Shown here: in pieces, positions 38,348 to 47,877 of the stretch
Layout of the letters: the number at the start of each line of letters is the position of its first letter
Numbering within the stretch: position 1 is the first letter of the stretch
Source of the DNA: Streptomyces sp. V1I1
GTDB taxonomy: Bacteria; Actinomycetota; Actinomycetes; Streptomycetales; Streptomycetaceae
Direction: 5' to 3'
Assembly: GCF_030817355.1 (NCBI RefSeq)
Contig: NZ_JAUSZH010000001.1
Location: 7,229,001-7,293,000, forward strand
Length of the DNA stretch: 64,000 nt
Position numbers and translations under genes: made by a program
The notes under the pieces: generated by a model
The model's database searches: none
What the model saw: the letters and a program-made list of their open reading frames with translations, nothing else
What the model was told of the DNA's origin: nothing

Positions 38348-39547
38348 ATGAGGGAAGCAGTCATCGTTTCGACGGCACGGACGCCGATCGGGAAGGCCTA
38401 CCGCGGCGCGTTCAATGACACCCAGGCGCAGGAACTTGCCGCCCATGCCCTCTCGCACGCGGTGCAGCGCGCCGGGCTCGAGGGAGGCGAGGTCGAAGAT
38501 GTGATCTTCGGCTGCGCCATGCAGCAGGGGTCATCCGGTGGCAACGTCGCCCGCCAGGCCGCTCTCCGTGCCGGACTTCCGGACTCCGTGTCGGGGATGA
38601 CGATCGACCGGCAATGCTCGTCGGGCCTGATGGCGATTGCGACGGCCGCCAAGCAGATCGTCGGCGACGGCATGCAGGTCGCTGTCGGCGGCGGTGTCGA
38701 GTCGGTCTCCCTGGTGCAGAACGAGCACATGAACACCCACCGCATGACGGATCCCTGGCTGGTCGAGCACAAGCCGAGTATCTACATGCCGATGTTGCAG
38801 ACGGCGGAGATCGTCGCCGAACGCTACGCCGTGAGCCGGGAACGCCAGGACGAGTTCGCGCTGGTGTCACAGCAGCGCACTGCGGCGGCGCAAGCGGCCG
38901 GGCGGTTCGACCAGGAGATCGTCGCGCTCGACAGCGTCAAGAAGGTCCTGGACAAGCAGTCCGGGGAGGTGCGGGACGAGGCCGTGACCCTGACCCGGGA
39001 CGAGGGCAACCGCGCGTCGACCACACTCGATGGCCTGGCAGGGTTGGCGCCGGTGCTGCCGGACGGTCAGGTGACCGCGCATTCCAGCGTGACGGCGGGC
39101 AACTCCTCGCAATTGTCGGACGGGGCTTCGGCGTCGGTGTTGATGGAGTCGAAGGAAGCCGAGCGCCGCGGACTGGAGCCGCTGGGCGTATACCGGGGTA
39201 TGGCCGTTGCCGGTTGCGGGCCGGACGAGATGGGGATCGGTCCGGTGTTCGCAATTCCGAAACTGCTGAAGCAGCACGACCTCACCATCGACGACATCGG
39301 TCTGTGGGAACTCAACGAGGCGTTCGCTTCCCAGGCGCTGTACTGCCGTGACGAACTGAACATCGACCCGAAGCGGTTCAACGTCAATGGCGGCGGAATC
39401 TCGGTCGGCCATCCGTACGGAATGACCGGTGCCCGCCTGGTGGGGCACGCCCTGATCGAGGGCAAGCGCCGTGGCGTCCGATATGTAGTGATCTCGATGT
39501 GTGTCGGCGGCGGAATGGGCGCAGCCGGGCTGTTCGAGGTCGCTTAG
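38348..39547 (+). CDS. Acetyl-CoA acetyltransferase / 3-ketoacyl-CoA thiolase
   Basis: The 399-residue thiolase has nucleophile Cys90 in IDRQCSSGLMAI, His355 in GGGISVGHPYGMTG and Cys385 in SMCVGGGMGAA. It would cleave 3-ketoacyl-CoA to acetyl-CoA and a shorter acyl-CoA, the last step of the proposed island pathway. The upstream promoter carries the shared palindromic operator. Confidence 0.92.
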   Translation: MREAVIVSTARTPIGKAYRGAFNDTQAQELAAHALSHAVQRAGLEGGEVEDVIFGCAMQQGSSGGNVARQAALRAGLPDSVSGMTIDRQCSSGLMAIATAAKQIVGDGMQVAVGGGVESVSLVQNEHMNTHRMTDPWLVEHKPSIYMPMLQTAEIVAERYAVSRERQDEFALVSQQRTAAAQAAGRFDQEIVALDSVKKVLDKQSGEVRDEAVTLTRDEGNRASTTLDGLAGLAPVLPDGQVTAHSSVTAGNSSQLSDGASASVLMESKEAERRGLEPLGVYRGMAVAGCGPDEMGIGPVFAIPKLLKQHDLTIDDIGLWELNEAFASQALYCRDELNIDPKRFNVNGGGISVGHPYGMTGARLVGHALIEGKRRGVRYVVISMCVGGGMGAAGLFEVA

Positions 39548-39584
39548 TCCTCATGAGAATCGGCGGACCATGGCTGCCTCGCAA

Positions 39585-39637
39585 CGGCCGGTGGGAAGCC
39601 GGCCGCGGTCGCATCGGCCGGTGGGAAGCCGGCCGCG
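39585..39637 (+). repeat. Two tandem copies of a 23-bp hairpin-forming repeat
   Basis: CGGCCGGTGGGAAGCCGGCC plus GCG occurs at 39585-39607 and again at 39615-39637, 30 bases apart. Each copy can form a hairpin (GGCCGG / CCGGCC around TGGGAAG). They lie between the thiolase stop and the HAD start and may tune expression of the downstream gene. Confidence 0.75.
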
Positions 39638-39646
39638 AGAGAGGGT

Positions 39647-46063: not shown

Positions 46064-46064
46064 G

Positions 46065-46847
46065 ATGGCAGGACTCGATCTCACCGGTCGCACCGTCGTC
46101 GTCACCGGCGCCTCGCGCGGTATCGGGCTGGCGATCGCCCAGGCCATCGCCGCGGCCGGCGCAAACGTCGTCCTCACCTCCCGGTCCCAGGAGGCGGCGG
46201 ACGCCGCCGCGGCCCAGGTCAAGGGCACAGCGGTCGGCGTCGGTGCGCACGCCGTCGACGAAGAGGCGGCTCAGCGCTGTGTGGATCTGACGCTTGAGCG
46301 CTTCGGAAGCCTGGACATCCTCGTCAACAACGCGGGGACCAACCCGGCCTTCGGGCCGGTCATCGACCAGGACCACGGTCGGTTCGCCAAGACCTTCGAC
46401 GTGAACCTGTGGGCTCCCGTCCTGTGGACGGGGCTGGCCACGCGGGCCTGGATGGGCGAGCACGGCGGGGCGGTCGTCAACACCGCGTCGGTCGGCGGCA
46501 TGGCCTTCGAGGCGAACATCGGGTTGTACAACGCCTCGAAGGCCGCACTGATCCATCTCACCAAGCAACTGGCCCTGGAACTCTCGCCGAAGGTTCGCGT
46601 CAACGCGGTGGCACCGGGTTTGGTGCGCACGAAGCTGGCCGAGGCGCTGTGGAAGGAGCACGAGCAGGCCCTGTCTGCCTCGACGGCGCTCGGGCGCATA
46701 GGGGAGCTTGCCGACATCGCCTCCGCGGTCGCCTTTCTCGTCTCGGACGCCGCGAGTTGGATCACCGGCGAGACCATCGTGATCGACGGCGGGCAACTCC
46801 TCGGTGACGCGCTCCCGTTCAGGCAAGGAGCCGGCATCGGTGTCTAG
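46065..46847 (+). CDS. Short-chain dehydrogenase/reductase
   Basis: The 260-residue SDR has VVVTGASRGIG, NNAG and the active site with Ser in NTASVGG and Tyr-Lys in LYNASKAAL. It ends WITGETIVIDGGQLLG like FabG-type reductases. By position between ACAD11-like and APH genes it is a candidate for interconverting 4-keto- and 4-hydroxyacyl-CoA (the LvaD role), or for 3-hydroxyacyl-CoA oxidation. Its stop overlaps the GTG of the kinase gene by 8 bases. Confidence 0.88.
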   Translation: MAGLDLTGRTVVVTGASRGIGLAIAQAIAAAGANVVLTSRSQEAADAAAAQVKGTAVGVGAHAVDEEAAQRCVDLTLERFGSLDILVNNAGTNPAFGPVIDQDHGRFAKTFDVNLWAPVLWTGLATRAWMGEHGGAVVNTASVGGMAFEANIGLYNASKAALIHLTKQLALELSPKVRVNAVAPGLVRTKLAEALWKEHEQALSASTALGRIGELADIASAVAFLVSDAASWITGETIVIDGGQLLGDALPFRQGAGIGV

Positions 46848-47877
46848 CGCGGACATCGTCGGAGTCGACGCCGGGGCGGTGAGCCGCTGGCTCGAGACCC
46901 TCGGCGTCGACTTCGCCGGGCCACTGACCTTCGACCGGATCGGGCTCGGTCAGTCGAATCTGACCTACTTGGTACGGGACCAGGACGGCCGCAGGTGGGT
47001 GCTGCGGCGCCCACCGCTGGGTCGCCTGTTGGCGTCGGCGCACGACGTGGCTCGCGAGGCGCGGATTCTGACCGCGCTGGAGGGCACCGCCGTCCCGACC
47101 CCACGGGTGCTCGGGCTGACCGCTGATCCCGCCGTGACCGACGTCCCACTGCTGCTCATGGAGTTCGTGGACGGCCAGGTCGTCGACACGATGCCGATCG
47201 CGCAGTCGTTGACGCCTGAGCGCCGCCGGGCGATCGGGATGTCCTTGCCGCGGACGCTGGCGAAGATCCACGCGGTCGATCTCGAGGCGACCGGGCTGAC
47301 CGGACTGGCCAGCCACAAGCCGTATGCGCAGCGTCAGCTCAAGCGGTGGACGGGCCAGTGGGAGAAGTCCAGGACCCGCGAGCTGCCCGCCCTCGAGGAC
47401 CTCACCCGGCGCCTTGTCGCCGCCGTCCCGGAGCAATGCGAACTGACGCTCGTACACGGCGATTTCCATCTGCGCAACGTCATCACCTCTTACGACAGCG
47501 GGGAGGTGACCGCGGCGCTCGACTGGGAGTTGTCGACGCTGGGGGATCCGTTGGCGGACATGGGCAGCCTGCTGGCGTACTGGCCGGAACCGGGAGAGGA
47601 GGAGACCGGGGGCGATTTCGCCGCCTCCGTCCTCGACGGCTTCCCGGACCGTGCCGAGCTCGCTCAGGTGTATCTGACCGAAACAGGCCGCGACCCGGCG
47701 GCACTGAAATTCTGGCATGTGCTGGGCCTGTGGAAGGTGGCTGTGATTGGTGAGGGCGTGATGAGGCGAGCGATCGATGAACCGAAGAACAAGAGCGCGA
47801 CAGGCACGCCCACCGTGGAACGCATCGATGCGCTCGTGGACAACGCATGTCGAATCGCTGACGAAGCCGGGATCTGA
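46840..47877 (+). CDS. APH-type kinase of the ACAD10/ACAD11/LvaA group
   Basis: The 345-residue protein (GTG 46840 behind AAGGAG) has an aminoglycoside-phosphotransferase fold. Seen are GLGQSNLTYLVRD, the ATP-site LRRPPLGRLLASAHDV, catalytic loop HGDFHLRN (Asp208, Asn213) and metal-binding DWELSTLGDPLAD (Asp228). This sequence type is that of the kinase domain of ACAD10/11 and of LvaA, which phosphorylate the 4-hydroxyl of 4-hydroxyacyl-CoA. It is not an antibiotic-resistance enzyme by context. LvaA needs a small partner LvaB; no such gene is seen here. Confidence 0.85.
   Translation: MSSADIVGVDAGAVSRWLETLGVDFAGPLTFDRIGLGQSNLTYLVRDQDGRRWVLRRPPLGRLLASAHDVAREARILTALEGTAVPTPRVLGLTADPAVTDVPLLLMEFVDGQVVDTMPIAQSLTPERRRAIGMSLPRTLAKIHAVDLEATGLTGLASHKPYAQRQLKRWTGQWEKSRTRELPALEDLTRRLVAAVPEQCELTLVHGDFHLRNVITSYDSGEVTAALDWELSTLGDPLADMGSLLAYWPEPGEEETGGDFAASVLDGFPDRAELAQVYLTETGRDPAALKFWHVLGLWKVAVIGEGVMRRAIDEPKNKSATGTPTVERIDALVDNACRIADEAGI

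What the first reader, a model, noticed from the sequence alone, without database searches (positions are those of the whole stretch)
38348..47877. All three modules of ACAD10/11 encoded as separate genes with ligase, reductase and thiolase: candidate phosphorylation-dependent 4-hydroxyacid pathway
Seen: an ACAD11-type dehydrogenase (Asp382 in LADGPDEV replacing the usual catalytic Glu), an APH-type kinase with intact HGDFHLRN and DWELSTLGD, and an ACAD10-like HAD protein. These come with an acyl-CoA ligase, SDR, enoyl-CoA hydratase and thiolase in one regulon. Known: ACAD10/11 and the Pseudomonas LvaA/LvaC enzymes are reported to process 4-hydroxyacyl-CoA through a 4-phospho intermediate. Inferred: the cluster breaks down 4-hydroxy or 4-keto acids (or gamma-lactones, given the alpha/beta hydrolase) to acetyl-CoA plus a short acyl-CoA. 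LvaB is absent, so it would be a variant system.
Basis: partly seen in the sequence, partly recalled or inferred. Interest (0 to 1): 0.82.

Follow-up and report, generated by a model that had tools for sequence, protein, structure and literature searches.

The report
Actinobacterial phosphate-dependent 4-hydroxyacid breakdown regulon
A Streptomyces-type genome carries a co-regulated gene set that probably feeds 4-hydroxy fatty acids into normal fat breakdown by adding and then expelling a phosphate, as animal enzymes ACAD10/11 do, with a phosphatase-like companion whose counterpart in the animal enzyme is still unexplained.

Summary
The window encodes thiolase, HAD, ligase, TetR, a broken SDR, enoyl-CoA hydratase, an ACAD10/11/LvaC-type dehydrogenase, a second SDR and an APH-type kinase. 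The dehydrogenase has the five active-site residues described for mouse ACAD11; the kinase has the catalytic residues and the CoA-binding Arg. Best reading: ligase, kinase, phosphate-expelling dehydrogenase, hydratase, SDR, thiolase.

Corrections: the alpha/beta hydrolase is of epoxide-hydrolase type; the HAD is only a subgroup relative of ACAD10's HAD; SDR1 lacks its catalytic middle; the kinase is intact in only 4 of 13 genus clusters, though strains without it keep one other kinase of the class.

The newer part is the HAD beside this ACAD clade in several actinobacterial genera. Its tie to the kinase is mixed: 8 of 8 in loci picked by the ACAD, but 9 of 31 non-Streptomyces loci picked by the HAD show no kinase. 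No reaction or substrate is proven. A new variant of a known kind.

The parts
37245..38141 (-). alpha/beta hydrolase, epoxide-hydrolase type (Asp nucleophile GHDWGG), divergent from the thiolase unit
   Evidence: Pfam; best structures are epoxide hydrolases 5ng7 (133 bits) and 5nfq (119); inclusion in the regulon is inferred from the shared promoter region only
38247..38268 (.). operator site 1, 0 mismatches to TTGAANNTGACGTCNNATTCAA
38348..39547 (+). thiolase (acetyl-CoA C-acyltransferase)
   Evidence: PRK07108 602.5 bits, cut-off 615
39647..40294 (+). HAD-family protein, motif I DxGG; D18, S124, K154, D178, D179 kept
40616..40637 (.). operator site 3, 2 mismatches, before the ligase
40705..42231 (+). 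AMP-forming acyl-CoA ligase
42488..43216 (+). TetR-family regulator (likely start; the longer frame begins at 42335); an operator-like sequence (3 mismatches, 42488-42509) covers the likely start codon
   Evidence: similar sequence in many relatives
43646..43667 (.). operator site 2, 0 mismatches, before the SDR1-ECH-ACAD-SDR2-kinase unit
43751..44038 (+). SDR1 remnant (95 aa): longer Gly run and in-frame loss of the middle, including the catalytic Tyr/Lys
   Evidence: against the intact copy of relatives
44035..44832 (+). enoyl-CoA hydratase
44834..46063 (+). ACAD10/11/LvaC-type acyl-CoA dehydrogenase; R255, R260, H263, R266 and D382 correspond to mouse ACAD11 R626, R631, H634, R637, D753
46065..46847 (+). 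SDR2, candidate 3-hydroxyacyl-CoA dehydrogenase
   Evidence: PRK07231 315 bits, cut-off 215; role inferred
46804..47877 (+). APH-type kinase of LvaA/ACAD10-11 kind; D220, N225, the DWE Asp and the CoA-binding Arg kept

Best explanation
A TetR-linked catabolic regulon for a 4-hydroxy (possibly 4-keto) carboxylic acid. The ligase makes the acyl-CoA. The kinase phosphorylates the 4-hydroxyl. The Asp-type, FAD-dependent dehydrogenase expels the phosphate and yields 2-enoyl-CoA without net oxidation. The hydratase, SDR2 and thiolase then finish a beta-oxidation round to acetyl-CoA plus a shortened acyl-CoA. SDR1, when intact, is a candidate 4-keto/4-hydroxy oxidoreductase (the role of LvaD). The HAD most likely acts on, or restrains build-up of, the phosphorylated intermediate. 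Where the local kinase is lost, a core kinase elsewhere in the chromosome can supply it. Shown by sequence: gene content, residues, operator and gene neighbourhoods. Inferred: every reaction, the substrate, the regulator's target and the HAD role.
For: ACAD: all five residues conserved in the window and in all 13 window-type clusters of the genus and in all 21 rows of its clade in the tree. In mouse ACAD11, nonconservative changes of R626, H634 and R637 were most disruptive, with phospho-intermediate piling up (PMC12440821, section 7 read). Kinase: D220, N225, DWE and the R176 equivalent conserved. Operator: the whole genome holds only the cluster's sites; in 12 relatives the matches are at the cluster or, in G049, its split halves, except one in G081. 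The five-gene unit SDR1-ECH-ACAD-SDR2-kinase is also annotated in one run on an R. opacus plasmid. HAD: 58 of 80 HAD loci have this ACAD within 8 kb; in 29 non-Streptomyces loci picked by the ACAD, HAD occurs in 8, all 8 with a kinase. Strains with no local kinase or only a remnant: 7 of 7 keep one other kinase of the class, next to the core ACAD in the 6 whose ACAD row was printed.
Against: No activity or growth data. The local kinase has an intact-length frame in 4 of 13 genus clusters, is split between two frames in 2, a 69-codon remnant in 1 and absent in 6. The window's SDR1 is broken. Among the 29 ACAD-picked non-Streptomyces loci, 10 have neither kinase nor HAD nearby and 21 lack the HAD. 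Among the 31 non-Streptomyces loci picked by the HAD, 9 show no kinase match, and three of these (L100, L102, L122) do have the ACAD. HAD was not found on any plasmid at 1e-25, although Rhodococcus plasmids carry the ACAD. 22 of 80 HAD loci lack this ACAD within 8 kb; some loci end at contig ends.
Confidence: 0.72

Rival explanations
1. Ordinary beta-oxidation cluster: the dehydrogenase works on common acyl-CoA and the kinase is a passenger serving another purpose.
For: Kinase lost or broken in 9 of 13 genus clusters while the ACAD is kept; ligase, hydratase, SDR and thiolase match generic families.
Against: The phosphate-contact residues and the Asp base are the same in all 13 clusters, kinase or not, and strains without a local kinase keep another. 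ACAD10/11 showed no activity on the plain acyl-CoAs tested, though the authors do not exclude partial activity under other conditions (PMC12440821, passages).
Confidence: 0.1
2. Same chemistry, but the natural substrate is a more complex 4-hydroxyacyl-CoA (terpenoid, steroid-like, or epoxide/diol-derived), not a simple 4-hydroxy fatty acid or levulinate.
For: A divergent epoxide-hydrolase-type gene beside the Streptomyces clusters (27 of 29 close matches have GHDWGG); a Sphingobium plasmid has ACAD, kinase, EphA-type epoxide hydrolase and P450 in one row; ABC-transporter-like genes (named from their look, not tested) flank many clusters; the ligase has no diagnostic match.
Against: A match to the window's hydrolase is near only 1 of 29 ACAD-picked loci outside Streptomyces; no metabolite data.
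Confidence: 0.35
3. The HAD is unrelated to the phosphorylated intermediate and is kept for another task, such as general metabolite repair.
For: 22 of 80 HAD loci lack the ACAD, two of them with the hydrolase and transporter-like genes but no thiolase (L080, L090); 9 of 31 non-Streptomyces HAD loci show no kinase; not in one clade with ACAD10's HAD.
Against: HAD next to the same ACAD clade in several genera; downstream of an operator copy in the window and many relatives; the 8 HAD-bearing non-Streptomyces loci picked by the ACAD all have the kinase too.
Confidence: 0.33
4. In this particular organism the pathway is decaying and does not run.
For: SDR1 is a remnant; related clusters show split frames, remnants and missing genes.
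Against: The other window genes are open; purifying selection in relatives (median dN/dS 0.10-0.32 over eight genes); two perfect operators kept.
Confidence: 0.25

Closest known systems
lva operon of Pseudomonas putida (LvaA kinase, LvaC dehydrogenase, LvaD reductase, LvaE ligase, LvaB)
   Same: Kinase and Asp-type ACAD with ligase and SDR; same inferred phospho-intermediate chemistry
   Different: A TetR gene instead of the sigma54-type LvaR; own hydratase, second SDR, thiolase and HAD; different phylum. LvaB was not searched for (no sequence in hand). P. citronellolis LA18T is reported to lack lvaB and to have a histidine phosphatase there instead (PMC6692424, passages)
Animal ACAD10 (HAD-kinase-ACAD) and ACAD11 (kinase-ACAD)
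   Same: The same three module types; catalytic and phosphate-binding residues of kinase and ACAD; DxGG HAD motif
   Different: Separate genes; the ACAD belongs to a distinct actinobacterial clade; ACAD10's HAD groups with the soluble epoxide hydrolase N-domain, not with this HAD
Core kinase-ACAD pair of the same genome (G000:C1:6731834-6733986)
   Same: Same enzyme pair, about 62% (ACAD) and 41% (kinase) identical
   Different: No match to the HAD, thiolase or hydratase within about 9 kb and no operator at 2 mismatches or fewer
E. coli YihX (glucose-1-phosphate phosphatase as named by PDB depositors)
   Same: HAD with D-x-G in place of DxD
   Different: Only 47 bits to the window HAD; sugar phosphate substrate by its name

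Membership tests
ACAD10/11/LvaC-type dehydrogenase | Catalytic Asp in place of Glu (mouse D753) | tested here: met
   D382
ACAD10/11/LvaC-type dehydrogenase | R626, H634, R637 phosphate contacts and R631 | tested here: met
   R255, H263, R266, R260
ACAD10/11/LvaC-type dehydrogenase | Groups with ACAD10/11, apart from ordinary ACADs | tested here: met
   tree with animal ACAD10, mouse ACAD11, Cupriavidus and Sphingobium members; LvaC itself was not in hand; outgroup branches are long
[quoted passage not shown]
   needs an assay
LvaA/ACAD10-11 kinase | Catalytic Asp and Asn, DWE Asp, CoA-binding Arg (R176) | tested here: met
   the paper's R86 could not be placed with certainty (an Arg two positions earlier by my numbering, before the conserved Glu, is kept)
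LvaA/ACAD10-11 kinase | Phosphorylates the 4-OH of acyl-CoA | not testable with these tools
   needs an assay
lva operon | Kinase, ACAD, SDR and ligase together | tested here: met
lva operon | LvaB present | not tested
   no LvaB sequence was in hand
ACAD10 HAD / TIGR02247 | Score above the curated cut-off of 125.4 bits | tested here: not met
   window 86.8 bits; six related HADs 74-90; two ACAD10 proteins 196 and 152
ACAD10 HAD / TIGR02247 | Single clade with ACAD10 HAD | tested here: not met
   ACAD10 with soluble epoxide hydrolase 100/99; cluster HADs apart (89/97), L051 unresolved; deeper forks are weak
ACAD10 HAD / TIGR02247 | DxGG motif I with motifs II-IV kept | tested here: met
   sets not picked by motif: 24 of 24 actinobacterial HADs; of 111 HAD domains in long database proteins, G at motif I+2 in 100, C in 1, gap in 10, Asp in none; K and DD in 111 of 111

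The most novel reading that the evidence does not exclude
Phosphate-dependent 4-hydroxyacyl-CoA catabolism needs a companion phosphatase or brake, and it was recruited separately at least three times: a soluble-epoxide-hydrolase-type HAD fused into animal ACAD10, a different DxGG HAD placed in the actinobacterial regulon, and a histidine phosphatase in the lva cluster of P. citronellolis. The bacterial stand-alone HAD would then show directly what the puzzling ACAD10 HAD domain does.
Probability: 0.3. Interest if true: 0.75.

Novelty: new variant of a known kind. Interest (0 to 1): 0.52.

Why it matters
ACAD10's HAD domain is reported to restrain its kinase with negligible phosphatase activity, and its trigger is unknown (PMC11342911, passages). 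A bacterial set with kinase, ACAD and HAD as separate proteins lets each be added or left out in a test tube. The operator gives a marker for the pathway and its missing parts in Actinobacteria; none of the paper listings I saw described this set. It also suggests that some Streptomyces and Rhodococcus strains break down 4-hydroxy or 4-keto acids, which is relevant to biomass-derived acids such as levulinate.

Tried and rejected
Gamma-lactone entry through the alpha/beta hydrolase: rejected as the default because its nucleophile is Asp and its best structures are epoxide hydrolases. Orthology of the HAD with ACAD10's HAD: not borne out by score and tree. HAD as an obligatory part: rejected (no plasmid match; 21 of 29 ACAD-picked non-Streptomyces loci lack it). 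A kinase elsewhere under the same operator in strains without a local kinase: none seen. At 1 mismatch the 12 relatives show only cluster sites, the split cluster of G049 and one site in G081 away from its cluster. Epoxide hydrolase as a constant partner: the weak (<40%) hydrolase matches lacked the GHxxGG motif (10 of 10), and 2 of 29 close matches did too.

Literature; I saw listings and starts of abstracts, some capped (20 of 229, 20 of 113). Passages of PMC12440821, PMC11342911 and PMC6692424 were read, and section 7 of PMC12440821 whole. The library lacks most subscription journals; Rand et al. 2017 is not held. A HAD structure prediction could not be made.

Limits of the counts. HAD loci: 80 kept of 172 found, so counts from them are conditioned on the HAD; the scan's word patterns also contain motif I or motif II. 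In one search I picked the ACAD10 sequences by a D-x-G-G pattern, so its '97 of 97' is circular; one search recounts without that. ACAD-picked loci: 32, all matches except G000 and G067, which were already studied; reach about 9 kb each side, less at contig ends (L203, L205, L206). The seven control loci leave out L051, a core-like type that has a HAD 35% identical. The 14 loci for dN/dS were chosen by me; the kinase value rests on 6. Tree rows were a chosen subset. In one search three of four control paralogs were mistranslated; one search has corrected ones.

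Full report
Observation. The window lies in an 8.3 Mb, two-contig genome; its closest named relatives with the same cluster are Streptomyces. Reading frames at the stated places are real and carry the stated families. The unit is: alpha/beta hydrolase (-) | thiolase, HAD, ligase, TetR, SDR1 remnant, enoyl-CoA hydratase, ACAD, SDR2, kinase (+).

Dehydrogenase. Its best solved relatives are mouse ACAD11 (449 bits), human ACAD11 and 4hr3; the next ACAD is at 158 bits. 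In mouse ACAD11, R626, H634 and R637 contact the 4-phosphate in the modelled complex, R631 is general and D753 is the base; changing R626, H634 or R637 to alanine or leucine was most disruptive to ACAD activity (PMC12440821; passages, section 7 read). The window has all five (R255, H263, R266, R260, D382), as do all 13 window-type clusters of the genus, including those without a kinase. In the tree the HAD-linked actinobacterial ACADs form a clade (100/99) within the ACAD10/11 family, apart from three ordinary ACADs of the same genome. A fourth paralog, L003, joins on a very long branch and also has the Asp. LvaC was not available; Cupriavidus and Sphingobium plasmid members stood in.

Kinase. 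140-172 bits to ACAD11's kinase domain and two stand-alone relatives, against 41 for the next kinase. Catalytic D220 and N225, the DWE Asp and the Arg equivalent to R176 are kept. The paper's R86 could not be placed exactly. No kinase tree was made.

HAD. Best named family is TIGR02247 at 86.8 bits, under its cut-off of 125.4. Two ACAD10 proteins score 196 and 152, and the nearest solved relative of an ACAD10 HAD is the soluble epoxide hydrolase N-domain. In the tree ACAD10's HAD joins that domain (100/99) and the actinobacterial HADs form another group (89/97); the HAD of L051 is unresolved and deeper forks are weak. Yet the motif pattern is the same. In sets not chosen by the motif, 24 of 24 actinobacterial HADs have D-x-G-G; of 111 HAD domains in the long database proteins (most named ACAD10), the second Asp of DxD is Gly in 100, Cys in 1, gapped in 10 and Asp in none; Lys of motif III and both Asp of motif IV are kept in all. 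YihX, named a phosphatase by its depositors, also has D-x-G, so the missing Asp alone does not show that either HAD is inactive. The 2024 paper reports negligible phosphatase activity of the ACAD10 HAD and higher kinase activity when its Asp is changed (PMC11342911, passages).

Regulation. The palindrome TTGAACTTGACGTCnnATTCAA stands before the thiolase (38247) and before SDR1 (43646), with weaker copies before the ligase (40616) and at the likely TetR start (42488); shuffles expect none. At 2 mismatches or fewer the whole genome has only 38247, 43646 and 40616 (reversed control 0). In 12 relatives at 1 mismatch every site is at the cluster, except one site in G081 away from it, and G049, whose cluster is split between two places. 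Similar sites lie in Rhodococcus, Nocardia and other loci and, with 2 mismatches, before the R. opacus unit; 5 of 29 ACAD-picked loci outside Streptomyces have one at 2 mismatches or fewer. That the TetR protein binds it is inferred.

Distribution. 137 of 150 genomes of the genus have an ACAD of this family at E <= 1e-150, most of them the core type near 60% identity; a kinase match adjoins all 15 core-type loci fetched. The window type (79% identity or more) is in 13 of 150, own genome included. The kinase is intact-length in 4, split between two frames in 2, a 69-codon remnant in 1 and absent in 6. The 7 genomes with the remnant or no local kinase each have one other kinase match at 1e-25; for 6 of 7 it adjoins the core ACAD, the seventh ACAD row was not printed.

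Association tests. HAD-anchored: 58 of 80 loci carry this ACAD (70% identity or more) within 8 kb; Streptomyces 38 of 49, others 20 of 31; a kinase match of any sort in 37 of 80, and in 22 of the 31 others. The 80 are the best of 172. Nine of the 31 show no kinase, three of them with the ACAD (L100, L102, L122). ACAD-anchored, free of the HAD bias: in 32 loci from genome samples of 396 and 394 (loci), the 29 outside Streptomyces have a kinase in 19, HAD in 8, SDR1 in 20, SDR2 in 11, ligase in 12. HAD with kinase 8, HAD alone 0, kinase alone 11, neither 10; the chance that all 8 fall among the 19 is 0.018, ignoring relatedness. Seven control loci of the core and another ACAD type had a kinase in 7 and HAD in 0; L051, core-like with a HAD 35% identical, was not among them. 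So the HAD goes with this ACAD clade, often but not always with the kinase.

Conserved unit outside Streptomyces. R. opacus plasmid pRop44186_a has SDR1-ECH-ACAD-SDR2-kinase in one run; no HAD was found on any plasmid at 1e-25.

Decay. The window SDR1 (43751-44038) has a longer Gly run and lacks the middle with the catalytic Tyr/Lys, compared with a ~272-aa copy in relatives. Selection in relatives I chose is purifying for the genes measured (median dN/dS: SDR2 0.10, thiolase 0.12, ACAD 0.12, ECH 0.21, HAD 0.21, TetR 0.23, SDR1 0.25, kinase 0.32; n = 14, but kinase 6, ECH 12, SDR1 13).

Mechanism. From the two mammalian papers, a 4-hydroxyacyl-CoA is phosphorylated and the ACAD then yields 2-enoyl-CoA, using redox-active FAD with no net oxidation. 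The window supplies the ligase before and the hydratase, SDR and thiolase after these steps. SDR1 or SDR2 could also serve as the 4-keto reductase, as LvaD does (PMC6692424 passages).

Known or new. The chemistry and the enzyme pair are known, and bacterial relatives are mentioned in both mammalian papers. PMC6692424 notes that P. citronellolis LA18T lacks lvaB and has a histidine phosphatase gene by the lvaA and lvaC homologues. Together with ACAD10 and this set, a phosphatase-type protein thus accompanies the pair in three lineages, with at least two kinds of protein. None of the listings or 72 showed a paper on the actinobacterial set; some were capped. I rate it a new variant of a known kind.

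Noticed in passing
G000:C1:4258784-4259890 (L003): A third, divergent ACAD (about 34% identical) with the Asp motif LDGPDELH and Arg at several phosphate-contact columns; the kinase matches listed are more than 200 kb away.
   Followed up: partly
L049, L050, L052, L053, L054: Another cluster type in the genus: a second ACAD (27-32%), kinase (about 31%), Asp-type ACAD with Tyr at the H634 position, SDRs, hydratase and ligase, with a thiolase in some.
   Followed up: partly
L051 (G098:C1:1039000-1058999): SDR, HAD (35%), kinase, ACAD as adjacent separate genes, HAD-kinase-ACAD in the same order as the modules of animal ACAD10.
   Followed up: partly
P0003, P0060, P0088: Single proteins with ACAD first and kinase second, the reverse of the animal order; no name given by their sources.
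   Followed up: no
L185 (Sphingobium plasmid pTomMM15a): ACAD, kinase, EphA-type epoxide hydrolase, isomerase and P450 in one row.
   Followed up: no
L042 and window 43751-44038: A kinase (L042) and SDR1 (window) shortened in frame with both ends kept; short kinase remnants also in L065, L069 and L092.
   Followed up: partly
L062, L068, L072, L073, L074, L080, L084, L085, L086, L090, L091: Streptomyces loci that keep the HAD, mostly with thiolase and TetR, but have no such ACAD within 8 kb.
   Followed up: no
window 33261-34517: Likely IS110-type transposase near the cluster (name recalled from its look, not tested).
   Followed up: no
window 53326-54432: Open frame with long charged repeats (SEKDEKSEKG type), a block present three times and a hydrophobic stretch near the C-terminus.
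   Followed up: no
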